From the NCBI GenBank assembly GCA_023105745.1, contig JALGQZ010000002.1:74565285-74629284 (forward strand): a DNA stretch of 64,000 nucleotides. Direction: 5' to 3'. The notes beneath the pieces were generated by a model. That model was not told the DNA's origin and searched no databases. It saw only the letters and a program-made list of their open reading frames with translations. The position numbers were made by a program, and so were the translations under genes. The stretch is from Austropuccinia psidii (Eukaryota; Basidiomycota; Pucciniomycetes; Pucciniales; Sphaerophragmiaceae). The first letter of the stretch is position 1; each line of letters starts with the position of its first letter. Positions 2,440-51,375 of this stretch are shown in pieces.

Positions 2440-4626
2440 TGTGAGCCTGTGAGGTATGTATAACATACCCATAAGGCCACAAATGATTCTAAAGACAGTT
2501 AATTTTGTCTTAAACAGACTTTTTAGTTGAATTTAAAATAAAAAATAACAAAAAATAAGTATAACTTTTTTTTGGATAAACAAAGTTATAATTATTATGT
2601 CATTTTTGGATTCTACACCAAAAATAACCTAGGGTACACCCATAGGGTGTTATACCCAAAAACACTTATTTCTTGTGTTATTGGAAGATTTAAGAATCTC
2701 ACAGTACTAATGTAGCTTTTTTTAACATTTTTTAAAATTGTTAAATTTAAGCTTAATTAAGCTTAAATTTAAAGTTACATAAGGTTTATGCAACTTTACC
2801 AAAATTTTAGTTAAAATTGGGGTGTTGTGTGTATTTACTGAATTGGCTAAGGATTTGCCATACAGAATGTAAATCCTGCGTGAGCTCAATTTAAAAGGGT
2901 TTAAAGCCATGGTATGGCTTTAAATAAATAAAAGGGCAAAATCCACGCAAAAAGGTGGGACAAAGGAAAAAGACCAAATAGAGCTGGGGTACCCAACTTT
3001 TTGGATCTGCAATGATTCAATTAAGGTTGTCAACCTGTATTGGAGGATTTTCAACCTTATTTAAGCTTTAAGATTAGACTTTGATCCAACCTTAAGGTTT
3101 AAACTGGTTTTATCCCAATTTGGACAGGAATTTCAAGCTGTCAAAGGGTAAATCCCAATATGCAAGCTTGAAATCAAGGTTTAAGAACTGTCAAAGCTTA
3201 ATTAAGCTTGAAAACCTTAAATAAGCTTAAAACTTTAAAGTTTCAAGCATTAAAACCTTATCAAAACTTAAGGTTTGGTGTGTATTGCTACTTTACGTGG
3301 AAAAATAGCAATAACTTCAAAAATTCATTAAAAATCCAATTCTCAATGGATTTGCTTGAAAATTTCACACAACTTAGAATTTAATATTATCAATATATAG
3401 ATTAAATTTTAAGTATCTTTTATAAATAAACTTCCTGGGTAATTAGCCTGGAAATTTACTCTTTTGATTAAGCTTAAAGAAAATTATGATTTCTTTAAAA
3501 ATTAATTAAAAATTGAGTTTAAAAGATTTCTGCTTGAAACTCTAATTTTAAGTTGTTCATGTGATGAAATTTAATATAAATAAACTTATTTTATATTAAA
3601 ACTTAAAATAATTAAACTAAATGAGGATTAAAGTTACTTGGAGTTAAGAATAACACTGGTAACTTTAAATTGGAAGTAAAAATAAGTTGCCTTAAGTTAA
3701 GAACTCTATTTTTAAGCATGGTTTTTCAGTTTTGACCTGAGCACGCCCTCTACATTCATTATGAATCATTAGAGCTGCCCTGAAGACATAAAAAGAGTCT
3801 TTTCATCACTGTTTTTGTCCATCATTCATTATCAATCCAATCATATTAGAAATTTAAACAGGTAAAGTTTTATTAAATATAAAATCTTATTATTAAAAGT
3901 AATTCTTAAGTTATTTTGATTCTTTATTTATTGAAATTAAAGAATTGAAGTCATAGAATTTAGATTATTGTTGTAATCACCAATAATATATTTTATTATA
4001 TAAAATTATCATTTTAAATATCTTTTAAAATCCACAAATTCCTCTCAAAAACTCTTAAATCATAATTTATATTATTAAAAGTTGTTTTATCTTTAAATTT
4101 ATTGATTTTTGACGTGTTTTTAACTTATAATTATTATTTAATATTGTAACTGTTGTATTTTGACTTATTGTATTAAATAAATCTTATAAGTAAGTTTTCT
4201 CTAGAATTCTATATTTTTTTATCTATTATTAGTTTTTTTTATATAGAATTTTTATTCTAAAAGAATTATTTCTGCACAGTGTGTGTTTAATTCTTTTTAT
4301 AAATAATATTTATATTATTTATAAGTGGTTAATATTCATATTTTCCACGTGTAATTGTCTCATTAAGAGCTTTACACTTCTTATTGTTATAACTGTCAGT
4401 GACTATAACAATAATAGAATAATTATGATTTATTATAATTATTTTTTTTTTATTATTATATTATTTTAATAATAATTAAATTTATTTTTTTTATATAATT
4501 ATTTTTGATAATTATATTTAAATTTGTGGTTATAATATTTTATTATATTATATTTTTCTACTGAGGACAGTCATAGTACTCTTGATATTGCTACTATTAT
4601 CAAGAGTTTCATAGACAAACCTTACA
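2440..4626 (+). repeat. D1 5' LTR
   Basis: TGTGAGCC..CCTTACA, 2187 bp, unusually long. It contains a perfect 32-bp AT palindrome (2741-2772), an interior rich in AAGCTTAA, and a consensus-like splice donor GTAAGT preceded by A at 4190. That donor is also conserved in the 3' LTR. No coding capacity. Confidence 0.93.
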
Positions 4627-4644
4627 TTTGGGGGCCTGGCCGTG
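4627..4644 (+). promoter_or_regulatory. D1 primer-binding-site candidate
   Basis: TTTGGGGGCCTGGCCGTG follows the LTR directly. A near-identical 18-mer follows the 5' LTRs of A1, A2, C1 and C2. Its position and the internal TGG fit a tRNA primer site offset by two bases, but I could not name the tRNA. Confidence 0.6.
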
Positions 4645-5177
4645 ATTTTAAACCAATTCTTGGGACATAAATCATATTCTAGACCTCATTTTACTAATTT
4701 TTGACGTAAAATTGCCATATTTGTCTTAATATTGGCTTTTTTGGGACTTATCCCTTGTAAATAATCTTTATAATATTAATAAAGTTATTTTTTCTTAAGA
4801 ATATTCTTTGAAACAATATACTATTGAGTGATTTGGAATAAATTTCTTTTGTCTAACTAGTGGCTTTTTCACATCACAGACTTGAAATTTATTCTTTGAG
4901 TTATTCTAGTATAAAGTGAATAATAATATAATTTTGATTAATTAACTTTTTAATTGCATAATTATTATTTCTTTAAAGAAAATAATAAATCAAATAAAAA
5001 ATCTTTAAAAATAAAAATCTTTACTAAAAACATTTTTTCTTTTTATCTTAGACATTTTTCTTTATTTTTGACATAATTTGCCATAAATTACATAAAAACA
5101 ACTTTATTCAATAAGTTGAGTTTATAAGTTATTTTTATTATTTGATAAAATAACTTATATTTTTAATTTCTCTCTAG
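4645..5177 (+). other. D1 leader, probable intron sequence
   Basis: AT-rich and without an ORF. It shares the motif GTGGCTTTTTCACATC with the A leaders and ends in a pyrimidine run and TCTCTCTAG at 5177. That end looks like a 3' splice site and is conserved in A1 and A2. It may be the downstream part of an intron whose donor is GTAAGT in the LTR (4190). Confidence 0.45.
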
Positions 5178-6124
5178 TGTCTTCCATCACAGAAAGTTCT
5201 TCAGACTCTGAAGCCTCAGAGTCCAGTATTGAAATTAAAACCAGCCCAGCACCAAGGGGTTTAATAACCAAAGAACCCTTTAAAGGTCCTGCAGGTGAAT
5301 TCAATTCAATTTTTACTCTATTTTTTATTAAAATTGACGTGAAATGACTCCTACTAGAAGTGGAAGCAACTACTCCATCCAATCAAATGGATCTGGACCA
5401 GGACATTCCAGCCACAAATCCAAAAGGCAAGAATGTCCTCCCAGAGGAGAGGCACAAATGGAGGATGCCAGAACTTCCACCAGTTCCCAAAGGTTAGCCA
5501 GCACCTTTGAACCTCTTCTTGAGAGTCCAGAAGCTGACATAACTGCTATTGCTGTTAGACCTGAACCATTTTCAACAGGCAGCTGTGGAAATTTATCAAT
5601 CCCAATGGAAAGACTGGTTCCTGGCGTCAAAACAACAAGAGTGGGAACTCCTTCCAAGTCTTTGGATAGGCACCATGAACTGTTATCTTCAAGTGAAGAA
5701 GTTCATGGGGCCAGAAAAGACAGAAGATCTTCTACTGGGTTGGACACCAATGTCTGTCAAAGGACAAGTCCAACAGATAAAAGCTTGGTTGAAAAACCAA
5801 AGCATGTTGTCAGAAGATCAGAAGAAGAAATTGGCTCAAGGCAAGGACAACAGCCCAGTGGAAGCTCCTCAAGCATCCACCAGCAAAAATCCGCCTCAAC
5901 CAGTGCCAAACAAGCCCAAGCAAGCCCCAAAAACCAACCAAAAGGGCAAGCAGAAGGCAAAGGGAAAGGCACAGGCCACGTGGAACAAGCCTTACCCGCA
6001 GAATTACAGAATTCCAAAGAAAGAGAAAACAGCCATGGACAATGTGTTCAATATGGCAAGAACTTTGATGGAATTCAAAAACAAGGAGGAGGAAAGATTG
6101 AACCAATCCTTTCCAAAGAAGTAG
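5178..6124 (+). CDS. D1 putative spliced accessory protein overlapping gag
   Basis: Proposed exons are 5178-5294, 5358-5492 and 5559-6124, with GT..AG introns of 63 and 66 nt. Phases agree at both junctions. If the upstream exon ends in A, the first codon is a split A|TG and the product is 272 residues. In order: an acidic Ser/Glu-rich start, an exon 2 segment with SNQMD and WRMPELPP, a Trp-rich helical core (EIYQSQWKDWF, GWTP, WLKNQS), a Lys/Pro/Gln-rich basic linker, and a tail with NMARTLMEF. The same motifs occur in the same frame in A1 and A2, whereas the gag frame over the same bases diverges. The gag ATG (5344) falls in intron 1. Splicing and function are inferred; I recognise no domain. 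It could also be an alternative N-terminal form of Gag. Confidence 0.6.
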
Positions 6125-6855
6125 ACCTTGTAAAGCTTGTAACTTACTTTGAATCTTGTAATAAAGAAATTATGGCAGAATTTAAAGCATTTGATCATGT
6201 CCAACAGAAGTTGGGTAATGAAATATTACAAGTAAAAGACCAACAAAAGACCATAATTGGCCTTGAAAATGTTAATAAGGCAAATATTTTGTCTTTGACG
6301 CAAATTTGTGAAAGACTTGAGTTTAAAGTTACCTTACTCAATCAACCAGATGAGCATTCAATTTCTTTTATAACTGGACAGTTGAAAGAATTGAAAATAC
6401 AAGTGCAAAACTTGGAAAATTCAACTGGTCACAATGCAGCTCTTTTTCAAGAACAATTGGAAAAAAGTGATAAAGCAAGACTTGAATTGAAAGAAGATAT
6501 TCAATCAAGTATTAATAATATATCACTGAAAAATGAATTGCCAAGGCAATCCACACCATTTCTTGACAGGAATGTTCTTAACTTTAATAATGATTTACAT
6601 CATACGATTTCAAGTAATAATGTGGAAACTGCTTGCAATTTTAAAGACATTCCAAGATTAGAGGAATGGCCAACCTTCAGTGGTGAAGGAGAATATAATC
6701 ATATGGAATTTATGAAAACAATTGATATGTTCAAAGAAGACTTTAACATACCAGATGAATACATAAGTGCCAGATTACACTCATTATTTACCAAATCAGC
6801 AAAGAAATGGTATTATAAGATGAGACAAGACCATGGTAAACATTCTTGGCCTTGA
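5344..6855 (+). CDS. D1 Gag part of Gag-Pol (ends at premature TGA)
   Basis: Structural protein that forms the particle. From the ATG at 5344, about 260 residues are low-complexity and overlap the accessory frame. They are followed by a coiled-coil-like stretch (about residues 260-400) and the start of a capsid domain (EEWPTFSGEGEY, KWYYKM). The frame stops at TGA 6853-6855, where A1 reads TGG (Trp). This is a nonsense change, since the frame continues without a break into 6856-10422. It is closely related to A1 Gag. The start is inside a predicted intron, so only unspliced RNA would give this protein. Confidence 0.8.
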   Translation: MTPTRSGSNYSIQSNGSGPGHSSHKSKRQECPPRGEAQMEDARTSTSSQRLASTFEPLLESPEADITAIAVRPEPFSTGSCGNLSIPMERLVPGVKTTRVGTPSKSLDRHHELLSSSEEVHGARKDRRSSTGLDTNVCQRTSPTDKSLVEKPKHVVRRSEEEIGSRQGQQPSGSSSSIHQQKSASTSAKQAQASPKNQPKGQAEGKGKGTGHVEQALPAELQNSKERENSHGQCVQYGKNFDGIQKQGGGKIEPILSKEVDLVKLVTYFESCNKEIMAEFKAFDHVQQKLGNEILQVKDQQKTIIGLENVNKANILSLTQICERLEFKVTLLNQPDEHSISFITGQLKELKIQVQNLENSTGHNAALFQEQLEKSDKARLELKEDIQSSINNISLKNELPRQSTPFLDRNVLNFNNDLHHTISSNNVETACNFKDIPRLEEWPTFSGEGEYNHMEFMKTIDMFKEDFNIPDEYISARLHSLFTKSAKKWYYKMRQDHGKHSWP

Positions 6856-9800
6856 TGGAAAGAACAAGTTATTTCCAAATGGGCAAATGATTCCTGGAGA
6901 TTTAGAATGGAAAATTCTTTTGAAGAAGCCATTTTTAATATTGAGAGGGACAGGCCCATGTCTTGGTTTCTTAAACAGAAGGACAGATTAACTGCCCTTC
7001 ATCCTGATATGTCTGAAACAATGGTACATAAAAGGATATTAAGAAAATGTGGTGGTGACCTTGAGCATGCTATAAGAAGCAGATGTATTGAGCCTTGCTC
7101 TACAGAGGATTATATCAATGCTATGGAGGATATCACTACTAGAACAAAAATTGGAAGAAATTGGTATAAACCCCCAATAGACAACAAGACTAGTGGGAAA
7201 CCAATTTCAAAACCAAATAAACCACATGACAGACCTCCTTTGAAATGTCATAAATGTGGAAGTACAACTCATTTGGCAAACACTTGTCCCAAAAAGAAAA
7301 GAGTCAATGAGATAAATATTGAAAAAGTGGAAGACACAAAAGAAACTGATGTATCTTTACATGAAAGTGATTCTGAACCTTCAGAAGAAGAAGTATTAGA
7401 AGAACTTAGTATAGAAAATATTAATGTTTCTTTTGAAGTCACTGAGGTACATACTCACTTACCACAGTACAGTGATGAATGCATGGATCTCATACATGTG
7501 CAAGATGCCAAAATGCAAAAAACCAAACCTGCCAGAGGTAAAGGTTATACAGCTGGGTCATCTTGTATCACTAATATTGTGAGAAATAACATAGAAGCCA
7601 AGATACATCTTGACTCAGGTGCTTTTTGCACTTGTGTTGGAAAAGATTATCTTGACAAGATTTATACCAATTGGCAAGACAAGTTGATGCCAATTGAAGG
7701 TATAAGATTCAGCAGTGCTAGCCAAAACATGCACCCTTTGGGTATATTTGAAGCAGCAATAATATTTCCTCATCCTGCAGGAAGTGTAAGATTGAAAGCT
7801 GAATTTGTTGTTATGAATAATTGTACTTCACAACACTTTATACTTGGAAATGATTATCTCAATATCTATGGTATTGATATTAATAATCATAAAGACAGAT
7901 ATTTCACTATAGGGGAAAATAAAAGGCAAAAATTTGCTTTTTCTCCAGAAAGAAGAGAAATCACTGTCATTAAACAAGTGAAAAATGTTAACAAGGACAA
8001 ATTTGTGTCAGATCAGCTAAGTGAAGCACAAATTAGTCCTGAATTAACACCAGAAATGAAGGAAGAACTTATTGAAATTTTATTTCAATATAGAGAAGCC
8101 TTTGCTTCTGATAATGAACCACTTGGGGCTATAAAAGGCCATGAGGTGGACATTATGCTTAATGTGGAAAGACCTTATCCACCACTATTAAGGAGACCAG
8201 CTTACCCAGCTAGCCCTAGAGCTAGAGAAGCATTAGAAAATCATATTAATGAACTAATGAAACTGGGAGTTCTTAGAAAAGTTGGGCACAATGAGGAAGT
8301 TGAAGTCACAACTCCAGTGATCATTACTTGGCATAATGACAAGTCAAGAATGGTTGGTGATTTTAGAGCACTGAATACCTACACTATTCCAGACAGGTAT
8401 CCAATCCCTAGAATTCATGAGACTTTGACTCAATTATCCAAAGCAAGATTTATTACTTCTATGGATGCTCTTAAAGGCTTCCATCAGAATGTTTTAACAG
8501 CTCATGCTAGGAAATTATTGAGAATAATTGCTCATTGTGGTATTTATGAATATTTGAGGATGCCTTTTGGTATTAAAAATGCACCCTCTCATTATCAGAG
8601 AATGATGAATACCATCTTCCCACATGAATTATCAGAGGGATGGTTAATCATTTATATTGATGAAATTATCATTTGTTCAGAAACCTGGCAATTACATTTA
8701 GAGAGACTTTCATTAGTACTTAAGAAAATCTTACAAGTGAACATGAAAATTTCTCTTAAAAAGTGTAATTTTGGATTTCATGAGTTAAAAGCTCTAGGAC
8801 ATGTAGTCTCAGGACTGAGCCTTGGTGTTGATAAAAACAAAGTGGCTGCAGTTTTACTGAAACAAATGCCCCAGAACAAAAAAGAAATGATGTCTTTCTT
8901 AGGGTTTGCCAGTTATTACAGGCAACACCTTAAAGATTTTCCAATCCATGCCAGATCATTATACAGAATTTGTGATCAACAAACTGTTTTTGAAATGACA
9001 CAGGAGAGAATTCAAGCATATGATAAAATCAAGTATGCCTTGACCAATGCACCATTATTATTGATGCCAGATTGGAAACTTCCTTTCAAGCTGTATATTG
9101 ATGCATGTGGTGATGGTTTAGGAGCTGCTCTTCATCAAGTTCAAATTGTCAATGACAAGCCTTATGAGGGTCCAATTTGTTTTATTTCAAGACAAATTAA
9201 ACCTACTGAGGCCAGATATGGAGCTAGCCAAATGGAGTGCCTTTGCCTTGTTTGGGCTCTGGAAAAACTTCATTACTATCTTGATGGTAGTGTGTTTGAA
9301 GTAATTACTGATTGTAATGCAGTAAAATCACTTCTTAACATGAAAACTCCAAACAGACACATGTTAAGATGGCAGATTGCTATACAGGAGTATAGAGGAA
9401 ATATGACCATAGTACATAAAGCTGGAAATATTCACAAGAATGCTGATGGCTTGAGTAGATGGGAATTACCCAATACACCTGACAATCCTGCCTATGTTCC
9501 TACAAGTGCAGAACCTCAAATTCCAATTGAAGGAATTAATATCACAGATGTTGGAACAGAATTCTTTGATGAAGTTAGAGAAAGCTATAAGCAAGATAAA
9601 AATTGCCATATACTTACTTCTCTACTTGACAAAGATTGCAAAGATGCAGCATTGGCTAATTCTCTGGATGATATTTGGAAAACATCTTATGACAACGGAA
9701 GATTCCATTTATTTGATGTTATATTATACCATAGGTCTAAACACACATGTGTCATGGTCCTATGTAGTAGAATGTTGATTAACACAATACTACTAGAATG

Positions 9801-10422
9801 CCATGATAACATTTATTCTGGACATCTGTCTGAAGACAGAACAATGGAAAGAATTAAGACATGTGCCTGGTGGCCATCTTGGAGAAAAGATGTCATTGAG
9901 TACTGTCACAGTTGTGATAGATGCCAGAAAGCCAATAAAGCTACTGGTAAAAGATTTGGTTTAATGATCCATATTCAAGAACCAAGTACCCCATGGGAAG
10001 TGGTTCACATGGATTGGGTAACTGCCTTACCACCTGGAGGTGATAAGAGTTACAATGCATGTCTTGTTATTGTAGACAGATCTAGCAAAACACCAATCTT
10101 TTTACCATGTCATAAGGATGACACAGCTATGGATACAGCTCTTTTAATTTGGAACAGAGTCATATCCCATACTGGTCTCTTTAAAAACATTATTAGTGAT
10201 AGAGACCCAAAATTCACATCAGCCTTATGGACTAATTTACATAAGCTTTTGGGTACAAAACTATCATTCTCAACAGCATACCATCCACAAACAGATGGGT
10301 TAGCAGAAAGAATGATTCAAACCCTTGAGGACATGATCAGAAGATTTTGTGCTTATGGCCTGGAGTTTAAAGATTCTGACGGCTTTACCCATGATTGGTT
10401 TACTCTTATACCAGCATTGTAA
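6856..10422 (+). pseudogene. D1 Pol: capsid end, zinc knuckle, protease, RT, RNase H, integrase
   Basis: Numbered from Met at 6907 (1171 residues). The C-terminal capsid is followed by a zinc knuckle [14 protein letters not shown] (114-127), aspartic protease LDSGA (235-239), RT with MPFGIKNAP, RNase H (IDACGDGLG), an integrase HHCC finger and a DDE triad: D1036, D1098 and E1134, with 35 residues between the last two. The RT motif is YIDE (Tyr583-Glu586, 8653-8664) where A1 and D2 have YIDD, so a catalytic Asp is replaced. The frame ends at TAA 10420-10422, where D2 has Glu. The product acts in reverse transcription and integration; this copy looks inactive. Confidence 0.92.
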
Positions 10423-11109
10423 TTAGCCTATAAGACCTCCATCCATGCTTCCACAGGCAAGACTCCTGCAATGTTGGAAAAAGGATGGAACCCCAAACTT
10501 CCAGTTGATACTTTGAAGAAAGATCTAGTTGATATTCATCCAACTGCTTCAAGCTTTAAATTGTTTCTTGATAAAGTGAGGCACCATGCAAATCAAAGCA
10601 TGAATGATGCCTTTGAATATGCTAAACAGAAATGGGATAAAAGTCATAAAACCCCAGAATTCAAAGTAGGGGACTTAATACTAGTTTCAACCTTGAACTT
10701 TAGTAATATTAAAGGTCCAAATAAATTGAAAGATTCCTTTGCAGGACCATTTATTATCAAAGCCCTTCATGGGACAAATGCAGTACAAGTGGAACTGTCA
10801 GGAGAGTTAGGAAATAAACATCCAACTTTTCCTGTCAGTCTTGTGAAGCATTACACTTCAAGTGATAAGGAATTATTTCCTTTAAGAAATGAAACACCCT
10901 TAGAGGTACCCCCACTTGAACCAAGTGAGGAAAAGAAAGTACTGAAAGTCTTAAAAGAAAGAAGACTTAGGGGCAAAAATGAAAGAGAATACTTAGTCAG
11001 GTACAGAAATCCACAACATGAAGATGAGTGGATTGAAGAAAGTAAAATACCTGATTCCCAAAAGTTTCTCAGAAGATTCAGACATGAGAGAAGAGCAATT
11101 CCTCAGTAA
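10423..11109 (+). pseudogene. D1 Pol end: integrase C-terminus and chromodomain
   Basis: In the same frame as the upstream pol ORF and separated from it by one TAA. It encodes the integrase C-terminal part (KVGDLILVSTLNF) and a chromodomain-like end (REYLVRYRNPQHEDEW), which in chromoviruses directs integration to chromatin marks. The true end is TAA at 11107-11109. It aligns with A1 (45471-45977) and D2 (59952-60923). Confidence 0.88.
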
Positions 11110-11244: not shown

Positions 11245-13432
11245 TGTGAGCCTGTGAGGTATGTATAACATACCCATAGGGCCACAAATGATTTTATAGA
11301 CAGTTAGTTTTGTCTTAAACAGACTTTTTAATTGAATTTAAAATAAAAAATAACAAAAAATAAGTATAAATTTTTTTTGGATAAACAAAGTTATAACTAT
11401 TATGTCATTTTTGGATTCTACACCAAAAATAACCTAGGGTACACCCATAGGGTGTTATACCCAAAAACACTTATTTCTTGTGTTATTGGAAGATTTAAGA
11501 ATCTCACAGTACTAATGTGGCTTTTTTTAACATTTTTTAAAATTGTTAAATTTAAGCTTAATTAAGCTTAAATTTAAAGTTACATAAGGTTTATGCAACT
11601 TTACCAAAATTTTAGTTAAAATTGAGGTGTTGTGTATATTTACTGAATTGGCTAAGGATTTGCCATACAGAATGTAAATCCTGCATGAGCTCAATTTAAA
11701 AGGGTTTAAAGCCATGGTATGGCTTTAAATAAATAAAAGGGCAAAATCCACGCAAAAAGGTGGGACAAAGGAAAAAGACCAAATAGAGCTGGGGTACCCA
11801 ACTTTTTGGATCTGCAATGATTCAATTAAGGTTGTCCACCTGTATTGGAGGATTTTAAACCTTATTTAAACTTTAAGATTAGACTTTGATCCAACCTTAA
11901 GGTTTAAACTGGTTTTATCCCAATTTGGACAGGAATTTCAAGCTGCCAAAGGGTAAATCCCAATATGCAAGCTTGAAATCAAGGTTTTAAGAACTGTCAA
12001 AGCTTAATTAAGCTTAAAAACCTTAAATAAGCTTAAGACTTTAAAGTTTCAAGCATTAAAACCTTATCAAAACTTAAGGTTTGGTGTGTATTGCTATTTT
12101 ACGTGGAAAAATAGCAATAACTTCAAAAATTCATTAAAAATCCAATTCTCAATGGATATGCTTGAAAATTTCACACAACTTAGAATTTAATATTATCAAT
12201 ATATAGATTAAATTTTAAGTATCTTTTATAAATAAATTTCCTGGGTAATTAGCCTGGAAATTTACTCTTTTGATTAAGCTTAAAGAAAATTATGATTTCT
12301 TTAAAAATTAATTAAAAATTGAGTTTAAAAGATTTCTGCTTGAAACTCTAATTTTAAGTTGTTCATGTGATGAACTTTAATATAAATAAACTTATTTTAT
12401 ATTAAAACTTAAAATAATTAAACTAAATGAGGATTAAAGTTACTTGGAGTTAAGAATAACACTGGTAACTTTAAATTGGAAGTAAAAATAAGTTGCCTTA
12501 AGTTAAGAACTCTATTTTTAAGCATGGTTTTTCAGTTTTGACCTGAGCACGCCCTTTACATTCATTATGAATCATTAGAGCAGCCCTGAAGACATAAAAA
12601 GAGTCTTTTCATCACTGTTTTTGTCCATCATTCATTATCAATCCAATCATATTAGAAATTTAAACAGGTAAAGTTTTATTAAATATAAAATCTTATTATT
12701 AAAAGTAATTCTTAAGTTATTTTGATTCTTTATTTATTGAAATTAAAGAATTGAAGTCATAGAATTTAGATTATTGTTGTAATCACCAATAATATATTTT
12801 ATTATATAAAATTATCATTTTAAATATCTTTTAAAATCCACAAATTCCTCTCAAAAACTCTTAAATCATAATTTATATTATTAAAAGTTGTTTTATCTTT
12901 AAATTTATTGATTTTTGACGTGTTTTTAACTTATAATTATTCTTTAATATTATAACTGTTGTATTTTGACTTATTGTATTAAATAAATCTTATAAGTAAG
13001 TTTTCTCTAGAATTCTATATTTTTTATCTAGTATTAGTTTTTTTTATATAGAATTTTTATTCTAAAAGAATTATTTCTGCACAGTGTGTGTTTAATTATT
13101 TTTATAAATAATATTTATATTATTTATAAGTGGTTAATATTCATATTTTCCACGTGTAATTGTCTCATTAAGAGCTTTACACTTCTTATTGTTATAACTG
13201 TCAGTGACTATAACAATAATAGAATAATTATAATTTATTATAATTATTATTATTTTTTATTATTATATTATTATAATAATAATTAAATTTATTTTTTTAT
13301 ATAATTATTTTTAATAATTATATTTAAATTTGTGGTTATAATATTTTATTATATTATATTTTTCTACTGAGGACAGTCATAGTACTCTTGATATTGCTAC
13401 TATTATCAAGAGTTTCATAGACAAACCTTACA
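11245..13432 (+). repeat. D1 3' LTR
   Basis: 2188 bp, nearly identical to the 5' LTR. The 32-bp palindrome is retained at 11546-11577. It is followed by the TSD acctt (13433-13437), then by the interrupted B1 leader. Confidence 0.93.
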
Positions 13433-27060: not shown

Positions 27061-27538
27061 TTATGGTGCTTGGTGGGGAGAAGAAGTTATGAAAGTAAGT
27101 TCCTCTCCTGGCATGCACCTTTAAGGGGGTATTCTACCCATATGTTGTTGTAAGCATCACCTTGGCCACTTTGTGAGCACTTGTCAATTCTTTGGACAGG
27201 TTCAGGAAGCATACAACACCAATACCCCCCCGATTTGGACTTATCAAGGTATGGCCAAATATTCCTTTCTTTGTTTTTCTTTTCTTTCTTCTTATTTATC
27301 ATTTCAATTTATGCCAATCATCATAATTCAAGACATTCATTACTTCAAGTCATTTACGGCAATTCCTTTCAGAAGCCATTTATGGCAATTCATCTCAGAA
27401 GTCATGTATGGCAATCTTTTTCAATTTTATGGTGCTTGGTGGGGAGTGGAAGTTATGAAAGTAGGTTCCATCTCCTGGTATGCATCCCTGAGGGTTCTAC
27501 TTCTTGTAAAACATCACCTTGGCCACTCTGTGAGCATC
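27061..27538 (+). repeat. Direct repeats in B2 3' region
   Basis: The unit begins TTATGGTGCTTGGTGGGGAG and runs through TCACCTTGGCCACT to TGTGAGCA. The two copies start 366 bp apart and have diverged. Between them, three 27-bp-like units of CAGAAG..CAT..TATGGCAAT occur at about 27350-27416. Confidence 0.75.
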
Positions 27539-28196
27539 AAATGCTTGGTTTTCATTTTTCAGACACTTTTTGGCCAGAATCAAGCAACTCACTACAAGAA
27601 GGACCAACCATCAGGATTTCTCTTTATTTCTTTCTTTACTCTCATTTTCTCTTATTCTTTTATTTTTCTTTCTTTATTTAATTTTATAATTCCTTTTCCT
27701 TTCTTTATTTCTTTTAGAGCAGCAACATCCACCTCCAAATCACGTATTGGGAGATTCCTTTATTTTTTATTTTTTATTTTTATTTAATTTTATTTTACTT
27801 TTACATATTTTATTTCATTTATTAGTATTTATAAGAGTATGAATAGAAGCCAAACCAAACAACTGTTCTAACACCACCCAAATCGTCAAAGTTCGAGGGA
27901 ATTCAGTCATCAACTCATGAAGAATACCCAAGCAGAAGGGTCAGGATGTCAAGTCAGGCCACTTCAAATTCAGAGAAAACCCTCAAGGAAGTGGGCCATA
28001 ACTCAATTATGGCCCCCCCCACTCAAGCCCTCCTTGGGCTGGATTCATCACCCAGGGCCTCCCCTGCAACCTTGGGGAGGCCATGGTCTTGGTGGTCCTG
28101 GACCCCCCAATGGGTCCAGGCCATGTAGGTGAAGTTATGGGTCAAAGGGCCAATCTATGGTCCCCAGCAAATTTGGGCCCAGGGGGCCTCCAATAG

Positions 28197-36207: not shown

Positions 36208-37163
36208 TGTCTTTAATCAAATACTGTACAGCTGGCAACAGACTCAGTAAAGGATACATTAATAGTCCAGAATCTTCATAAGCAGAATCTGAAGACAGTA
36301 TTGAAGTGCAAATTGCTAAAAGAGGCACTTTATTCAAAACAGAACAATGCAAAAAACCACCCACAGGTGTTTTTTTCCATTTCTTATTTTATCTTGAATT
36401 GACATGAAAATGGTGCATACCAGAAATGGAAGAAACTATTCAGTCCAACCAGATGGACATGGACAAGGAAGAGGCAAGACCAAATCCAGAAGTGTCAAAT
36501 CTTCCTCAAGAAAGACACATATGGAGGATGCCAGAGTTGCCCCCCATTCCCCAAGGTCTGTACCCACAAATTTTGATGTGAATTCTAAATCTGGACTGAC
36601 TCATGATAATAATTCAAGGGCTGAACCACTTTTAAGTGGCAGAAATAGAAATTTATCAATGCCAATACAAAAATTGGTTCAGAGCAGCCAAAGAAGGGGA
36701 GTGGGAAATATGCTCAAGCCTTTGGCAGGGGGCCATGAACTCCTACTTACACATTAAGAGCTTTCTGGCTCAGGAGAAGACCATAGAGCTCTTAAGAGGT
36801 TGGAGCCCATTTTCTTGCAAAGACAAGTTAAAAAGGATAAAGAATTGGTTGAAGAACCAAAGTCTTTTATCCATAGACCAGAAGAAGGAGTTGGAAATGA
36901 CTCCAGCTTTGGATACAGAAGTCCCAGTGCCTCCTACCAGCTCCAAACCAGCTCCAGAAGTGTCCAAGGACAAGCCCAAAGGACCTAAGAAGAAGCAGAA
37001 AGGTCCCAAGAACCATCAAAGAAAGGGCAAAGGCAAAGCCAATTGGCACAGAAATTACCCACAAGGGTCCAGGATTCCCAAATTGGAGCCTTCAGCAGTT
37101 GACAGTGCCTTCAATATGGCCAGAGCTCTTATGGAATCACAGCCAAAGAGCAGAAAAGGATGA
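36208..37163 (+). pseudogene. A2 spliced accessory ORF overlapping gag
   Basis: Exons by homology to D1: 36208-36366, 36424-36555 and 36619-37163. The introns are 57 and 63 nt, GT..AG, and the phases agree. Exon 2 reads MEETIQSNQMD and WRMPELPP. Exon 3 contains EIYQCQYKNWF, GWSP, WLKNQSLLS, YPQGSRIP and NMARALME. There is a TAA in exon 1 (SPESS then stop) and another at the start of exon 3 (CAA to TAA in LNHFQ), so this copy is broken. The gag ATGs (36404, 36410) lie inside intron 1. Confidence 0.55.
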
Positions 37164-38629: not shown

Positions 38630-39213
38630 TTTTGGGGGCCTGGGCATGTTTTAACTTATTGGGACCATTACAAGTTAATTTTTTTCTTTTATATTTCTTA
38701 TTTCTGACAATTTCTTTATCATTTTTAGGCATATTTTTTGCTTAAAAATATATAACATATATATATATTTATTCAATTGGTCTATGTACCACTCTTTACT
38801 CATATTTTAAGAGTATCTGTCATGTGGTCAATACCCACAAGACCTTTATTTTTGGTGTTTTTTACATATAAAAACACATAAGCCATCAATAAGTCCTGTA
38901 TTTTGATTAAATAAGGACACCTCTGACTGTAAAACCAAGATTTGAGGCGTGGTTAAGTGTATTGTTGACTCAATTACACTCATACAGATCATACCTGAAA
39001 ACCACAAGTGAATCTGTGGGATACTAGTACACAAACAGTGTAACAGGGTACCAAAAGCTGTCATTCTGACGTGGCCTTGTTAATTCAATTACACTGTCAT
39101 TATACAGGGAATATTGTAGTAATATACAAGCCCAGAGGCCATTCTTAGATGTGCAAAGAGCATTTTGAGAAGTCTTAACTGACATAAGCCCTCTTTTTCC
39201 TACTTTGATTCAC
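38630..39213 (+). other. C2 primer-site candidate and leader intron-like segment
   Basis: A degenerate copy of the shared primer-site motif lies at 38630-38648. The C1 donor GTAAGT is GTTAAT here (38674), and the C1 acceptor ATTCAG is ATTCAC here (39213), so the signals seen in C1 are damaged. The branch-like TTAACTGAC is retained at about 39175. Confidence 0.55.
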
Positions 39214-40276
39214 TGGAAGAGAATTATATCCCACTTGAGACCCAGTCACAGGCCAACACACCAGTGACACCCTCAGAACCACAGGGCAGCAAGGGAAAAG
39301 GAAAGAGGCACAGTGAAGGCCTGATTTCAGCAAAGAAGTGGACACCAATAGCCACCCAGAGAAGTAGAAAACCACAAAACTCTGCATCAATACAAGGTAA
39401 ACCAACCTTAACAACTTGTACAGGGAAGATTACTATAATTAACCCAGTTGTAACCTCTAAAGGTAAATTGCCCAAATCAGCAGACAACAAATTTGTACAA
39501 GGCACAGTCAAAGGCAAATACCCTAAGAACATAAAGTTTTTGACTGCTTGCAAACACTGATATGTCACCTGTATACCTCAGAGACCTTGGCTTCCAAAGG
39601 AACCAGACAGAGGACAGAGAAGGCCTGTCTAGAACCAGAAGACCTGGAAGAGGACACCTTGGACACAGTGGTGGATGGCAAAACTATGAGGGAGATAATA
39701 TCAACATTGCCATTCACACTCCAATTCAACAGGAACCTCAAACTAGAGGACTGGAAGGAGATGGATCAAGTTCTTCAGCTCCACCAACTCCTCAAAGATT
39801 TATTTCAATGGAGAATGGACAAGAGGTTCAACCTGGCATCTCACTGGGAAGAACTTGGAGCAGGTTGCCAGAAGATCTGTCTCAAAGAGATAGACTTCAA
39901 AGACCTTATGGTAATCACCAAAGGTTGGAATCCTACCAGGAAGTTCAGACTCCTGGAGGCAAGGGCACAGAGGATAAGGGAGAATCAAGCCACTATCCAA
40001 GCTATAGAAGAACAGTTAACCCAGACAGGGCCTACTAAGATTCCTTCAGGCTCACAAGGAGCAGGCCAAATAAGCTCTCCAGTGGCTTCACACCATTCAG
40101 ACACCAACAAATCAATTACCAGGAGTCACCACTCTTCACAATTCCAGGAGGTTTCCAGGAGAAGAAAAGGATACAAGGGGAAAAACAAGACCTCTTTCAG
40201 CCAAAGGCAGAGAGAGTCAGACCCCATGATCCAGAAGTTGTATTTGGTGAAAGAAGTGCACAAGAGCCGGAAGTAG
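39214..40276 (+). CDS. C2 putative spliced accessory protein overlapping gag
   Basis: Exon 1 starts at 39214 in the frame reading EENYIPLETQSQ. It ends at donor GTAAAC (39397) or GTAAAT (39463). The acceptor CCTCAG ends at 39581, and exon 2 runs 39582-40276 in the frame reading ETLASKGTRQ. Both donors keep the phase. Exon 2 has a Trp-containing, mixed helical segment (EDWKEMDQVL, FQWRMDKRF, KGWNPTRKF) that resembles the A/D core, including a GW-P motif, then a Ser/Lys-rich tail. The gag-frame ATG (39562) is within the proposed intron, as in A and D. No known domain recognised; splicing inferred. The damaged upstream signals suggest this copy may no longer use it. Confidence 0.5.
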
Positions 40277-41643
40277 TTGTAAACCACTCTAGAATCAGTA
40301 GTCCCAGTAATAGAAACATTACCCCCACTCAAATTGAACAAAATATTGTCACACCTGAAAGTAACTTAAACAGTGATGCACTGTGGTTCAAAATGTCCCA
40401 ACATGCTGAGAAAACTCAAAAACAGTTTGCAGAACTTGAAGCAAGCCATGAGAGGATGAAGAAATTAACAGCCTCCATGGATAAAATTGTCAAAACTCTT
40501 CAAGAAGGACATGCTCAATTGAGCAAAGCCTCTGAAGAGACCAACAAAAGACTGAATCTAGTCTTTGAAGAAAAACACCACAGCAAAAGGGACAGGGACT
40601 GTCTGGACCAAGACATAAACAAATTTTTTAATGTCTACCATAACTTGAAGCCCCAACCACAAGGCCACGTTATGGAAAATCCATATCAACCAGATGACAT
40701 CAAACCAGATGCCATGTTGATGAATAAGGAAAGATCTCCATCACAATACCAGAATGGAGATGGCATGTCTTATTCAGAGAAGGAAGCCTTGAAACAGCTT
40801 CCTGAGGCCTCAAGATGGCCCAAATTCTGTGGAACAGGAGAATATGATCATATGAAACTCATAGATTATATTGATGGACTCTTCATTGATGTACCAAGCA
40901 TACCACATTACTGGGTTACTGCTAGACTAAATACAGAATTTGAAGGTCATGCTAGTATATGGTACACAGAAATGAAAGAAATCCATGGCAGAAGAAACTG
41001 GCAATGGTGGAAGAGTCAAATCATCCAAAAGTACAGTAATGGAACTTGGATATGGCAGAAGACCATGTCATTTGACAGTGACAAATACTCTGTGGACAAA
41101 GATCCATATGAGTGGTGTCTTAGACAGCCTAAAAGACTTAAAGCCATTTATACTCCGATGAACATCCAAATGAGGAATCACAAACTTCTGACACAACTTC
41201 CAGGAGAACTGGAGCATGCAGAAAAATGCAGATGCAACCAAAATTGCACTCTACATGACATTGCTAATACCTTACAAGACATAAGGAAAAGAACTAATAT
41301 AGGGAACTTCAGCCTATATAGGAGCAGTAGTTCCAAAGAGAAACAACCTCCCAGGGTGGAGTTTAAAGACAAACCCAGAAAAGGGGTGGCAGAAGTGGCA
41401 AAGAAGAAGAATACTTGTCACAATTGTGGTTTAACAGACCACTATACCAACAACTTTCCAAAGGAAAAGAACAAAGTCTATGCCATTGAGGAAGTCCCAG
41501 AGGAGGAATCCCCAACAGAGGATTCTGAATCAGTGTCACAGCAATGGAGACAGGCAGGGCATTACCTTTCATTACTAATGGAAAATCTTCCAACACCTAA
41601 TCAGCAAGGGGTTTCATGGAAGATTCACCAAAAACAGTTTTAA
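39562..41643 (+). pseudogene. C2 Gag, fused at its end to B3 LTR sequence
   Basis: ATG 39562. One stop (TAA 40036-40038) interrupts an otherwise open frame. A coiled-coil-like stretch at about 40390-40640 is followed by a capsid homologous to A/D (SRWPKFCGTGEYDHM, IWYTEMKEIHGRRNW) and a zinc knuckle in which the last Cys is Phe (CHNCGLTDHYTNNF). From 41534 the frame reads into the B3 LTR, so the last 36 codons to TAA 41641 are not C sequence. Pol is not present in the window. Confidence 0.82.
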
Positions 41644-43409: not shown

Positions 43410-45330
43410 TATAAGATGTGACTATGAAACTGATGATAATATTACTATTAATCAACAGTACTATGTCTGTTCTTATGAAATATAATAATAAAAATTATTA
43501 TAACCACAATTAAATAATTATAAAATTATTTCTTTCACGTGTTATACACTACTAGTGATTATAACAGTGAGCAGTAATTGTCTACAAGAATCAATTACAA
43601 GAAGAATTTAATAATAAAAACTTCTTTTATTAAAATAATAAAATTATTTTAATATATAATTATCTTTTACAAGAATAATTATAAAGATAATTCTTGAAGA
43701 AAACTATTACTAGACAAAAACTTTAAGAATTAAAGATAAATGACTCACTAATACTCCAAAGAACTTATTGATAGATATAAGTAGAGAAATTTGACGTAGA
43801 ATTGTGGATTTAAGGGATCAAAAGGATTTATAACAGTATTACAACAATATATAGTTGGATTCTATGATTTCACGTATTTCTGATTGATTCTGAAAGATTT
43901 AAAATACTTAAGAATAGCTGTAACTAATACTTACTCGTTGGTAATAATGATTTAATAAATTGATAAGATGATAATACGGAAAAAACAGCAAGAAAAGGCT
44001 TCTTTTAAGTCAACAACAGCTCACAGAGGTGTGCCATGGAGCAAACTGGAAAATTAGTGAGTGAGAAAAAAATAAACCTTTTTGGATTATTGATTGCATC
44101 ATCTGTTGTCACGTAAGATTATCATAATTACTTAATTGATGCTTTTACATGATTACCAACCCCAATATGGTTAAGAATAAAAGGAGTAACATCTGTAAAT
44201 CTTCTTTCATTCTAAAATAATCATTGATTCCTCAAAGTTATCAATGTTATTGCCAATTTCATCACAGGTTGTAATTACTGTGAATTTTTGAAGATTCAGT
44301 GTTTCACATAGAATGGTCAAAAATGGACTGTAAGTAGAACTTTTAATTTTACTAGTAAAACCATAATTCTTTTTGGTTGTACCATAGATAATACAGTTTT
44401 TCATTGGTCCTGAACGTTTCAGGAAGATTCATTAAGAATTGTATTTTTAATGAATTTTTGAAGTTTTTACCTCATTTCTACGTAGAATTGCAAATAGCAG
44501 TATTTTGCTGGTTGCTATGAGGTAAATCAATGAATATGGATCCCAAAAGGGTTTAATTACTCTTTTAGGGTCTAGTCATGGAAAGTCATCAAGAATTGAC
44601 GTGGTTACAGGAGTCTAAGTAGCTCATTACCTCCTTGGCATGTCAAAATAGCAGGTTATTTGCTACTTTTCTTATGATTACAGTAGGTGTAACTTGGTAA
44701 CCAAGTTCCCAAAGAGTTTTAGTTTACCAATTGGGCCAAGATGAGCCATGGATCCATGCTCTGGAGCTATCCACGCCTCTGAGGCCTCAGAAGTTGGGTA
44801 CCCTGGCTCTCTTTGATGTCTTTTGTCCCCCTTGCCTAATTTTTACGTCAAAATAGTAATTTAAGCTTAAAGTGAGATATCCACTATGGGTGTATCAAAA
44901 GTCCATGTAAGAATACTATGATATTAAGTGCTCAAAACATGCATAACACTATTATTAGTGTATATGTAACACGGGATTTCTCACTTTCCCATTATTTTGG
45001 CTAAAAATCAAGAAAAACAAAAATTTTCAGTGATCTTTTATGCGGTATTAATGATGTGGTATTGAAGTATTTTCCATTTTACCACCTCAAATACTTAATT
45101 TGAGCTTATTCACTCTATGGAGCTACCCTAGGTGAATTTTTGTGTAGAATTCAAATCTGGTCTTAAATCCATGGATTTACTTACTCAATAAAAAGTTATT
45201 CATCTTTTCTGAAATTGAAAATGATGAATTTTGGATATATGCATGACTTATGAGTTTTGCATAATTCAAAATTTCTTTTTAAGATAATTGTGGCCTATTT
45301 GGGTATGTAAAATATACCTCAAGGCTCACA
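43410..45330 (-). repeat. A1 3' LTR
   Basis: 1921 bp. On the plus strand it reads TATAAGATGTG..GGCTCACA, so one terminal base (G to A) is changed. It contains several TGACGT motifs (for example 43792 and 44598). Confidence 0.93.
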
Positions 45331-49604: not shown

Positions 49605-51173
49605 TCAAGTAAGTGGTTTGTCTTTTTCTGAGTTAAAAATGGCATTTTCAAAAGCATTCTCCATTTTAAACCTCCAAGAATTATTGGCCCATTTGGTAAT
49701 CACTTCAGATTTCCACCAAGACCAGTCATGTCTTTCATGATCTATTCTCATCTTGTAATACCATTTCTTTGCAGTCTTGGTAAACAAACAATGTAATTTT
49801 CCTACTATGATTTCATCAGGTATATTAAAGTCTTCTTGCAACATATCAATAGTCCTGATGAATTCAATATGGCTGTATTCTCCTTCACCAGAGAATGCTG
49901 GCCATTCTTCTAATTTGGGAATATCCTTTGCAGAAATAACATTTTCTCCTAAGAATGGAGTAAAACTTTCTTTTACAGAAAGTTTTTCTTCAGTCAAAGG
50001 TGTAGAATGTCTTGGCATATGTGGTTCATGATTCTTATGAATTTTCTCCACACTTGCAATTATTTCATTCTTCAATTTCTGCCTCTCACTGTCACTTTTT
50101 GCTAAATGTATAGCAAATTGATTGGTGCTCTTAACTATTTGTAAGACATGGTCTTCAATAGTTTTAAGTCTATCATTTACTTTAAAAATGGAAGGATCCT
50201 CTGTGTCACTATTTTGACATTGGTTCTCAATTCTTTCACAAGCATTGCTAATTGACTCAAGGGTGACAGTTGTCAATTGATGCCATTCAGAATGTTGCTT
50301 GTCACTTTTCTTTAAATCATTGATGTCTAATGTAATTTGCTTTAACTTTGACTCAAGTTTGCCAATTTCTACACTAATACTTCTATGTACATCATTTATT
50401 TGCGTGGAAAGGTCCTGTTCATCCTTTCCTGCTCCTTGGCTGTGAATTCCATAAGAGTTCTGGCCATATTGAAGACACTGTCCACGGCTGAAGGCTCCAA
50501 TCTGGGGATCCTGTACCCTTGTGGGTAAGGTCTGTGCCAATTGGCTTTGCCTTCGCCCTTGCCTTGATGGTTCTTGGGACCTCTCTGTTTCTTTTGAGGT
50601 CCTTTGGGCTTGTCCTTGGATGCTTCTGGAGCTGGTTTGGAGCTGGTAGATGCCACTGGTGCCTCTGTCTCCAAAGTTGGAGTCATTTCCAACTCTTTCT
50701 TCTGGTCTATGGATAAAAGACTCTGGTTCTTCAACCAATTCTTTATCTTTTTGACCTTGTCTTTGCAAGACAGGGGGCTCCATCCTCCTAAGAGTTCTAT
50801 GGTCTTCTCCTGACCCAGAAAGCTCTTGATGTTTAAGTAGGAGTTCATGGCCCCCTGCCAAAGGCTTGGGCAGATTTCCCACTCCTCTTCTTTGGCTGCT
50901 CTGAACCAATTTTTGTACTGGCTCTGATATATTTCTATTGCTGCCACTTGAAAATGGTTCAGCCCTGGAAATATTATCATAAATTAGTTCAGGCTCAGAA
51001 TATACGTCAAAATCTGTTGGTACAGACCTTGGGGAATGGGGGGCAACTCTGGCATCCTCCAGATGTGTCTTTCTTGTGGAAGATTTGGCACTTCTGGATT
51101 TGGTCTTGCCTCTTCCTTGTCCACATCCATCTGGTTGGACTGAATAGTTGCTTCCATTTCTGGTATGCACCAT
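49605..51173 (-). CDS. A1 Gag part of Gag-Pol (ends at premature TGA)
   Basis: ATG at 51173 (MVHTRNGSNYSVQ). The GTG two codons upstream is not needed as a start. The low-complexity half overlaps the accessory ORF. A coiled coil (about 50390-50060) and the capsid (LEEWPAFSGEGEYSH, WYYKMRIDHERHDW) follow. The TGA at 49605-49607 is where D1 has Trp (LTW), and the frame continues into pol. The ATG lies in the intron-like segment 51224-51160. Confidence 0.82.
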   Translation of the reverse strand: MVHTRNGSNYSVQPDGCGQGRGKTKSRSAKSSTRKTHLEDARVAPHSPRSVPTDFDVYSEPELIYDNISRAEPFSSGSNRNISEPVQKLVQSSQRRGVGNLPKPLAGGHELLLKHQELSGSGEDHRTLRRMEPPVLQRQGQKDKELVEEPESFIHRPEERVGNDSNFGDRGTSGIYQLQTSSRSIQGQAQRTSKETERSQEPSRQGRRQSQLAQTLPTRVQDPQIGAFSRGQCLQYGQNSYGIHSQGAGKDEQDLSTQINDVHRSISVEIGKLESKLKQITLDINDLKKSDKQHSEWHQLTTVTLESISNACERIENQCQNSDTEDPSIFKVNDRLKTIEDHVLQIVKSTNQFAIHLAKSDSERQKLKNEIIASVEKIHKNHEPHMPRHSTPLTEEKLSVKESFTPFLGENVISAKDIPKLEEWPAFSGEGEYSHIEFIRTIDMLQEDFNIPDEIIVGKLHCLFTKTAKKWYYKMRIDHERHDWSWWKSEVITKWANNSWRFKMENAFENAIFNSEKDKPLT

Positions 51174-51375
51174 TTTCACGTCAATTTAAAGATAAAAGGT
51201 GAAAATATAAGATAAAATACACACCTTTTTTTAGCTTTTTCTGAGTTGAATAAGGTGCCTCTTTTAGCAATCTGCACCTCAATACTGTCTTCAGATTCTG
51301 CTTCTGAAGATTCTGGACTAGTGATATATCTTTTACTGAGTCTGTTGCCAGCTGCACAGTATTTGATTAAAGACA
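50396..51375 (-). pseudogene. A1 spliced accessory ORF overlapping gag
   Basis: Exons by homology: 51375-51225, 51159-51028 and 50964-50396. Introns are 65 and 63 nt. Exons 2 and 3 join in phase and read MEATIQSNQMD, RHIWRMPELPPIPQ, GLNHFQVAAIEIYQSQ, KNWF, GGWSPLS, WLKNQSLLS and NMARTLMEF. A short indel near the exon 1 donor, compared with A2, puts exon 1 out of phase with exon 2 as read here. The conservation with D1 in this frame is higher than in the gag frame. Confidence 0.55.

What the first reader, a model, noticed from the sequence alone, without database searches (positions are those of the whole stretch)
5178..6124. Gag start codon sits in an intron; splicing would open a conserved overlapping protein (D1)
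Seen: two GT..AG segments (5295-5357, 5493-5558) of typical fungal intron length. Removing both joins three open segments in phase into a 272-codon frame offset from gag. The gag ATG (5344) is inside the first segment. Compared with A1/A2 the offset frame is the better conserved one: SNQMD, WRMPELPP, EIYQSQ.K.WF, GW.P, WLKNQS and NMARTLMEF are all shared, while gag over the same bases is mostly low-complexity and divergent. Inferred: unspliced RNA encodes Gag-Pol and is copied, while spliced RNA encodes an accessory protein, a retrovirus-like switch not known to me for fungal Ty3/gypsy elements.
Basis: partly seen in the sequence, partly recalled or inferred. Interest (0 to 1): 0.9.

Follow-up and report, generated by a model that had tools for sequence, protein, structure and literature searches.

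The report
Retrotransposon splices out its gag start
In the myrtle-rust fungus, Ty3-type jumping elements carry a second protein hidden in another reading frame under the start of their capsid gene, and genome copies of related elements that have lost the introns exactly show that splicing removes the capsid start codon and joins the second protein's reading frame.

Summary
The host is inferred to be Austropuccinia psidii. Two rows of evidence carry it.

(1) Both frames are constrained. Between window copies A and B, changes in the overlap pile up at the offset frame's third codon positions. The gag frame is kept open by synonymous choice: 0 of 35 stop-making T endings, against 29 of 76 elsewhere.

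(2) The genome holds copies whose introns are missing, i.e. reverse-transcribed spliced RNA. 12 in relative B lack intron 2 (7 of them also intron 1); 18 in a distant family, D, lack the intron that holds the gag ATG. Eight of the 18 also lack a leader intron, which joins A|TG into the missing start codon; two of these eight read 311 codons without a stop. Reversed-pattern controls gave 0.

In the finding's own family one copy (L063) lacks intron 1, but a microhomology deletion is also possible there.

Not shown: RNA reads, translation, function, intron 2 removal in family A, the leader donor in A and B. A Rev/CERV-like export role is a guess.

The parts
2440..4626 (+). 5' LTR of the element (TG..CA ends; ACCTT repeated outside both LTRs)
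   Evidence: 98.4% identical to 11245-13432; ends read
4627..5177 (+). leader: GC-rich stretch just after the LTR (PBS position), then AT-rich sequence ending in a pyrimidine-rich stretch and TAG; probably the 3' part of a leader intron (inferred)
   Evidence: a leader intron with a comparable acceptor is missing in 8 of 18 D-family spliced copies
5178..5294 (+). exon 1 of the offset protein; begins with TG, the 2nd and 3rd bases of the presumed start codon
   Evidence: length 117 in 30 of 30 A copies
5295..5357 (+). intron 1 (GTGAAT..TTGAC..CTAG); contains the gag ATG
   Evidence: homologous intron missing in 7 B-family copies; missing in A-family copy L063, where a microhomology deletion is an alternative; length 60-64 in 30 A copies while the exons stay constant
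5344..6855 (+). gag reading frame, 503 codons here; ends at an in-frame stop in the capsid-like region of this copy
5358..5492 (+). exon 2 of the offset protein, overlapping gag
5493..5558 (+). intron 2 (GTTAGC..CTGAC..GTTAG), read as coding in gag; 66 nt, a multiple of 3
   Evidence: homologous intron missing in 12 B-family copies; not found missing in family A
5559..6124 (+). exon 3 of the offset protein, overlapping gag
6907..10422 (+). pol: RT, RNase H, integrase, weak zinc knuckle
   Evidence: Pfam; zf-CCHC 15.2 bits is below its cut-off of 20.8
10471..11109 (+). Tf2-1-like SH3 plus weak chromo domain at the end of pol
   Evidence: Pfam; Chromo at 20.9 bits is below its cut-off of 25.1
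11245..13432 (+). 3' LTR
49605..51179 (-). relative B: gag frame with the same overlapping arrangement (LTRs 51768-53686 and 43412-45330, 98.3% identical)
50399..51160 (-). relative B: offset exons 2 and 3 with intron 2 (63 nt) between them
36261..37157 (+). relative C: offset exons 1-3 with both introns
38674..39213 (+). relative D: leader intron (donor and acceptor both decayed in this copy: GTTAAT and AC)
   Evidence: missing in 8 of 18 D-family spliced copies
39214..39513 (+). relative D: exon 1 of the offset protein
39397..39462 (+). relative D: optional 66-nt in-frame intron inside exon 1
   Evidence: missing in 10 of 18 spliced copies
39514..39581 (+). relative D: intron holding the gag ATG at 39562 (GT decayed to GC here)
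   Evidence: missing in 18 genome copies
39582..40276 (+). relative D: exon 2 of the offset protein, overlapping the gag frame (39562-40038, 40393-41643)

Best explanation
These Ty3/gypsy elements use splicing as a start-codon and frame switch. Unspliced RNA is read from the gag ATG, which lies inside an intron just before its 3' splice site, and gives Gag-Pol. When the gag-ATG intron is removed (with intron 2 in families A/B and a leader intron), the gag start is lost, the offset exons are joined, and a start codon is formed by joining A|TG across the leader intron. The spliced RNA then encodes a separate basic, probably helical protein of about 270-310 residues whose exons overlap the 5' part of gag in another frame. 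Supported here: the spliced RNAs existed in families B and D (reverse-transcribed copies), and both frames are under constraint. Inferred: translation of the spliced RNA, the A|TG start in families A and B, and removal of both introns in family A itself (one ambiguous copy). Guess (about 0.3): the protein helps intron-keeping genomic RNA leave the nucleus, as Rev or Cer1 CERV do; other roles (particle assembly, dosage control, silencing suppression) remain open.
For: Intron-less copies. Family B junction pattern: 13 hits, control 0; 12 of 13 truly lack intron 2, and 7 of these 12 also lack intron 1 although intron 1 was not in the search pattern (6 exact, L038 one base short). None of 33 copies not chosen by a splice junction, or whose junction match proved false, lacks intron 1 (29 A loci, window A, B and C, L041; Fisher P = 1.7e-5; 30 of the 33 are family A, so the groups differ in family too). 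Family D: 18 hits, control 0; 10 of 18 also lack the 66-nt intron and 8 of 18 the leader intron, creating ATG GAA, though neither was in the search pattern. Family A: 1 hit with 3 mismatches, L063, control 0. Independent events: B copy L034 is 97.7% identical to the unspliced window B but at most 95.4% to any other member of the B set; fully spliced D copies interleave with copies that keep the leader intron, e.g. L050's nearest neighbour is L051. Uninterrupted reading: 285 codons in 3 of 7 two-intron-less B copies (L032, L034, L039); 311 codons from the spliced ATG in 2 of 8 fully spliced D copies (L050, L057).

Selection. Positions: A vs B; 11 B copies chosen by junction plus window B, variants shared by at least 2: overlap 15/14/45 at offset positions 1/2/3, gag-only 41/42/84 at gag positions 1/2/3, density 0.131 against 0.228. 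Synonymous choice: gag-frame stops 0 observed against 8.0 expected in A exon 3, 0 against 7.5 in B, 1 against 7.7 in D, 3 against 11.4 in C; the same frame relation in A's gag-only sequence shows no depletion, 35 against 34.3. The offset frame is likewise kept open given gag (0 against 3.0, P = 0.013). In 30 A copies exon 1 (117), exon 2 (135) and intron 2 (66) never vary in length, while intron 1 varies from 60 to 64.
Against: No RNA-seq, Ribo-seq or peptides. No intron-2-less copy of family A within 3 mismatches. L063's junction reads CCTACAG|AAG: one substitution from the spliced form, but also one base from a deletion between TCCT repeats, and CCTACAG is in none of 30 unspliced A copies. 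No leader-spliced copy of family B recognised: 25 pattern hits, 24 with the pyrimidine-rich upstream bases of unspliced copies and 1 unclear, judged from the 12 upstream bases listed. Leader donor not identified in A or B. Exon 1 shows no codon periodicity between A and B (21/20/17 differences). A exon 2 alone: shuffle test not significant (0 against 1.3, P = 0.15; Fisher P = 0.015). Of 29 A loci, 7 have a stop in the gag frame before the end of the stretch and 2 have lost the gag ATG, against 1 early stop in the offset frame, but they were chosen by offset similarity. Profile comparison finds no homology between the A/B and D offset proteins (probability 0.4%), so the two could have separate origins. 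AlphaFold models are poor (pTM 0.22 and 0.20).
Confidence: 0.91

Rival explanations
1. Only the offset frame is a real protein here; the gag frame over these bases is open by accident and Gag starts further downstream.
For: Gag amino acids are weakly conserved in the overlap and gag position 3 is the least variable there.
Against: Synonymous codons of the offset frame avoid making gag stops in A, B and D (0/35, 0/39 and 1/44 T endings before AA/AG/GA) with no depletion in the same frame relation in A's gag-only sequence. Intron 2 keeps a length divisible by 3 (66 in A, 63 in B and C) although it is non-coding for the offset protein.
Confidence: 0.06
2. The intron-less copies come from DNA deletions or from one intron-lacking master lineage, so they say nothing about splicing.
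For: Some intron-less copies are close to each other (L046, L048 and L049 at 96.5-97.4%; L056 and L061 at 97.8%), so part of them may be propagated copies. For L063 a deletion between TCCT repeats with one lost base fits as well as splicing.
Against: In B and D the ends coincide with the predicted splice sites, with 6 zero-mismatch junctions in each. Different introns are missing in different combinations; fully spliced copies sit next to copies that still keep the leader intron; B copy L034 is nearest to the unspliced window copy.
Confidence: 0.04
3. The offset frame is a chance open frame and the annotated introns are gene-finder artefacts.
For: The MF-1 protein models are predictions of unknown support.
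Against: Codon-position pattern in the between-family comparison and in the junction-chosen B copies, about 53-55% identity kept in most B-type relatives listed, and intron-less copies.
Confidence: 0.01
4. Splicing is real, but the product acts as an inhibitor or particle component (compare Ty1 p22) rather than in RNA export.
For: The exons overlap gag, and the protein is basic with a lysine-rich stretch; predicted helices are low-confidence.
Against: It lies in another frame, so it is not a truncated Gag. No direct evidence either way.
Confidence: 0.35

Closest known systems
Cer1 of C. elegans and its CERV protein (PMC10309623; abstract and passages seen)
   Same: LTR retrotransposon whose spliced mRNA encodes a lineage-specific accessory protein; splice sites lie within gag; unspliced RNA gives Gag-Pol.
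   Different: CERV exons 1-3 and 5 share the frame of the polyprotein and only exon 4 is in another frame; its C-terminal half lies in the env position; its function is shown experimentally. Here all exons use another frame, lie at the 5' end, and the gag start codon itself is intronic.
BARE1 (PMC3735527; abstract and outline seen) and Arabidopsis EVADE (described in PMC12786077; passages seen)
   Same: LTR retrotransposons with functional introns that separate RNA roles.
   Different: The spliced RNA there makes Gag itself; here splicing abolishes the gag start and makes another protein.
Retroviral Rev/Rex/Tax style regulators (recalled; Rev also mentioned in passages)
   Same: Spliced RNA, basic protein, overlapping frames, intron-keeping genomic RNA.
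   Different: No sequence relation was tested or claimed; export function unknown; host is a fungus.
Ty1 p22 (search listing and start of abstract only, PMC8458377; that it is an N-truncated Gag is recalled)
   Same: A second protein from a fungal LTR element's gag region.
   Different: p22 is an in-frame product of a transcript that starts inside gag, not a spliced overlapping frame.

Membership tests
Ty3/gypsy (chromovirus-type) LTR retrotransposon | RT, RNase H and integrase in pol, integrase after RT-RNase H | tested here: met
   RVT_1 478-633, RNase H 722-829, H2C2 957-1011, rve 1029-1127 (32.5 bits, just under its cut-off of 32.6)
Ty3/gypsy (chromovirus-type) LTR retrotransposon | two LTRs with TG..CA and short target repeat | tested here: met
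   2440-4626 / 11245-13432, 98.4%; ACCTT on both sides
Ty3/gypsy (chromovirus-type) LTR retrotransposon | chromodomain at the end of integrase | tested here: inconclusive
   Chromo E = 3e-4, 20.9 bits, below the cut-off of 25.1
Spliced accessory-protein LTR element (Cer1-like) | accessory frame joined only in spliced RNA | tested here: met
   segments separated by in-frame stops in A and B and intron-less copies in B and D
Spliced accessory-protein LTR element (Cer1-like) | accessory protein is made | not testable with these tools
   no RNA-seq, Ribo-seq or peptide data at hand
Rev/CERV-type genomic RNA export factor | needed for nuclear export of unspliced RNA | not testable with these tools
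   no expression or function data
Rev/CERV-type genomic RNA export factor | sequence or fold relation to a known export factor | tested here: inconclusive
   0 Pfam hits for exon 3 at E <= 0.1 and 0 solved-structure hits at E <= 1; models too poor to compare
Gag-only spliced RNA (BARE1/EVADE shGAG type) | spliced RNA keeps the gag start and makes Gag | tested here: not met
   the gag ATG lies in the intron in A, B, C and D

The most novel reading that the evidence does not exclude
A self-encoded regulator of genomic RNA (Rev/CERV-like), overprinted on gag and released only by splicing away the gag start codon, is a shared and ancient feature of the Ty3 elements that inflated this gigabase fungal genome, and spliced copies inserted across the genome are a fossil record of its regulation.
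Probability: 0.35. Interest if true: 0.92.

Novelty: new variant of a known kind. Interest (0 to 1): 0.82.

Why it matters
Eight searches of the held paper library listed no title or abstract start that describes splicing between Gag-Pol and an overlapping-frame protein in a fungal LTR element; I saw listings, and abstracts or passages of five papers only, and subscription journals are largely missing, so this is weak evidence of absence. If it holds, it gives a natural system for how an element keeps intron-bearing genomic RNA from being fully spliced, and a clear overlapping-gene pair under selection. Because the genome preserves reverse-transcribed splice products, splicing history can be read from DNA alone, which could be applied to other TE-rich genomes.

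Tried and rejected
Protein structure: two AlphaFold jobs gave low-confidence helical models (pTM 0.22, 0.20), so no fold search was run. Pfam (exon 3) and solved-structure searches of the offset protein found nothing. Profile comparison of A/B with D offset proteins: no homology; my earlier impression of a shared motif was dropped. Viral contigs: 4 stretches matched a pattern, none a relative. Exon-3 counts were set aside, because those loci had been chosen by similarity to exon 3. Leader-spliced B copies: 25 hits, none convincing from the 12 upstream bases listed; their loci were not read. L041 matched the junction pattern by chance and was dropped from the spliced count; L041 and L042 were left out of the codon counts, which therefore rest on 11 loci plus window B (the script's heading says 12). 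L042 matches B only up to exon 2 by BLAST. In D, L053, L055 and L059 diverge downstream (nearest identities 52-75%) and inflate the gag-only variation. A-C and B-C comparisons beyond the overlap rest on 64 poorly aligned sites and were not used. The confidence was lowered from 0.92 to 0.91 for that reason. Taxonomic spread beyond A. psidii was not settled: the two protein searches list 120 of 422 and 120 of 1049 rows, all named A. psidii except P0079. The number of unspliced copies could not be obtained.

Full report
Setting. The window lies at G000:C2:74565285-74629284 of a 1.015-Gb genome. 119 of the 120 listed protein matches to the offset frame are named Austropuccinia psidii MF-1, so the host is inferred to be that rust. 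The finding sits in an LTR element with LTRs 2440-4626 and 11245-13432 (98.4% identical), TG..CA ends and ACCTT repeats; pol carries RT, RNase H and integrase, with a weak zinc knuckle and a weak chromodomain. This copy is not intact: gag ends at a stop at 6853-6855, in the capsid-like region.

Observation. Both GT..AG segments and the 272-codon joined frame are as described. The gag ATG (5344) is inside the first segment, between a TTGAC branch-point-like motif and the 3' splice site; the motif was recognised by eye and from general knowledge of introns. Two further window copies, B (minus, 49605-51179) and C (36261-37157), have the same arrangement. A fourth, much more distant element, D (38674-41643), has it too: exon 1 in one frame, an intron holding the gag ATG (39562), and an exon 2 overlapping gag in the same relative frame as in A. 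The A/B and D offset proteins show no detectable homology.

Which frame is constrained. A versus B: exon 3 differs at 89/185, 54/185 and 44/187 of offset positions 3, 1 and 2; exon 2 at 17/44, 13/44 and 7/44; gag-only sequence at 107/222, 73/220 and 70/222 of gag positions 3, 1 and 2; introns 1 and 2 differ at 45% and 52% of sites. Exon 1 shows no clear pattern (21, 20 and 17 differences). In B copies chosen only by a 28-base junction (11 loci, leaving out L041 and L042, plus window B), variants shared by at least two copies fall 15/14/45 on offset positions 1/2/3 in the overlap and 41/42/84 on gag positions 1/2/3 beyond it, and the overlap holds about half the shared variation per site (0.131 against 0.228). 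In D (18 loci plus window D) the overlap gives 45/44/68 and 0.227 against 0.450; the gag-only pattern there is weak (124/106/135 on gag positions 1/2/3) and partly disturbed by three loci that diverge downstream.

Is gag also read. In the offset frame of A exon 3, codons that could end in T never do so when that would make a gag stop (0 of 35), but do in 29 of 76 other places (P = 2e-6); B gives 0 of 39 against 26 of 84, D 1 of 44 against 30 of 103, C 3 of 43 against 28 of 72. Shuffling synonymous codons predicts 8.0, 7.5, 7.7 and 11.4 gag stops in A, B, D and C; observed 0, 0, 1 and 3. A exon 2 alone is weak (0 against 1.3, P = 0.15; Fisher P = 0.015). In A's gag-only sequence the same frame relation shows no depletion (35 observed, 34.3 expected), and the offset frame is kept open beyond what gag coding predicts (0 against 3.0, P = 0.013). 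Intron 2, which gag must read through, is 66 nt in A and 63 in B and C. Intron 1, mostly upstream of the gag ATG, varies from 60 to 64 among 30 A copies (29 loci plus the window) while exons 1 and 2 and intron 2 keep their lengths in all 30. Among those 29 loci, 7 have a gag-frame stop before the end of the stretch, 2 have lost the gag ATG, 1 has changed the leader acceptor AG and 1 the intron-2 donor GT; they were chosen by similarity to offset exon 3, so such counts are biased.

Spliced copies in the genome. If spliced RNA was made, some of it should have been reverse transcribed. The B junction of exons 2 and 3 (28 bases, up to 3 mismatches) was found 13 times, the reversed pattern 0 times. 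Reading the loci: 12 of 13 lack intron 2 (L041 does not), 7 of the 12 also lack intron 1 (6 exactly, L038 one base short), 4 keep it and L043 is rearranged there. For D the junction that removes the gag-ATG intron was found 18 times, control 0; 10 of 18 also lack a 66-nt in-frame intron, and 8 of 18 lack the leader intron. Where the leader is kept, its donor just after the PBS position was readable in 9 of 10 copies: GTAAGT in 5, GTGAGT or GTGAGC in 4. In the eight without it, the junction reads ...A|TGGAAG and makes the start codon ATG. Two of the eight (L050, L057) then read 311 codons without a stop; the other six stop after 291, 256, 167, 76, 45 and 34 codons. In B, three of the seven two-intron-less copies read 285 codons through; the other four stop after 131, 97, 15 and 4.

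The finding's own family. One copy, L063, 94-96% identical to the window, lacks intron 1 and keeps intron 2. Its junction, CCTACAG|AAGTGG, is one substitution from the spliced form CCTGCAG|AAGTGG. On checking, it is also one base from the product of a deletion between TCCT repeats, and CCTACAG was in none of 30 unspliced copies, 28 of which read CCTGCAG. So L063 fits splicing but does not prove it. No family-A copy without intron 2 was found. The case for family A therefore rests mainly on its homology with B, which has introns at the same places.

Independence. L034 is 97.7% identical to the unspliced window B but at most 95.4% to any other member of the set. Among D copies, fully spliced L050 is nearest to L051, which keeps the leader intron, and L045 is nearest to the unspliced window copy. 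Some groups (L046, L048 and L049; L056 and L061) may be propagated copies, so 30 copies in B and D do not mean 30 events.

Mechanism. Supported: RNAs with these introns removed existed and were copied in B and D, and two frames are maintained. Inferred: the spliced RNA is translated from A|TG; this start is directly visible in D and assumed for A and B, whose acceptor is a pyrimidine-rich stretch followed by TAG|TG, but whose donor I could not find and for which no leader-spliced copy was recognised. The function is unknown; the protein is basic (pI 9.4) and predicted helical with low confidence. The need to keep genomic RNA unspliced makes an export or retention-control role attractive, as for Cer1 CERV, but nothing here tests it.

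Known relatives. Cer1 makes an accessory protein from spliced RNA partly in another frame (PMC10309623, abstract and passages). BARE1 (PMC3735527, abstract) and EVADE (PMC12786077, passages) splice to make Gag. In these fungal elements splicing removes the gag start instead. Papers on the A. psidii genome (passages found by search terms in PMC8063080 and PMC12774611) describe Ty3/gypsy expansion but, in the passages I saw, no such arrangement. I judge it a new variant of a known kind: retrovirus-like splicing of an LTR element, with an unusual layout.

Noticed in passing
window 39397-39462 and loci L044-L061: Family D has an optional 66-nt intron inside exon 1 that keeps the frame; 10 of 18 spliced copies lack it and 8 keep it, so two forms of the protein may exist.
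   Followed up: partly
window 4860-4875: A block GTGGCTTTTTCACATC is identical in A, B and C inside an otherwise diverged leader; it could be a packaging, transcription or splicing signal.
   Followed up: no
window about 51237-51161 (B) and 39514-39515, 39212-39213 (D): Splice sites are damaged in individual window copies: B lacks bases before its intron-1 donor that its relatives have, D has GC for GT at the gag-ATG intron and AC for AG at the leader acceptor.
   Followed up: partly
L041: This copy keeps intron 2, but the end of the intron has taken on exon-2-like sequence (CATTCCCCAAG), perhaps by template switching or conversion with a spliced copy.
   Followed up: no
window 6853-6855: The gag-pol frame of this young copy (LTRs 98.4% identical) is interrupted by a stop in the capsid-like region.
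   Followed up: no
leader of families A and B (window 4627-5177): No convincing donor for the leader intron; it may lie in the LTR, in which case spliced RNA would lack the primer-binding site and leave no genomic copies. Unexplained.
   Followed up: partly
   Followed up: no
window 27173-27787 and 27181-27681: Two overlapping open frames in T-rich sequence; probably chance.
   Followed up: no
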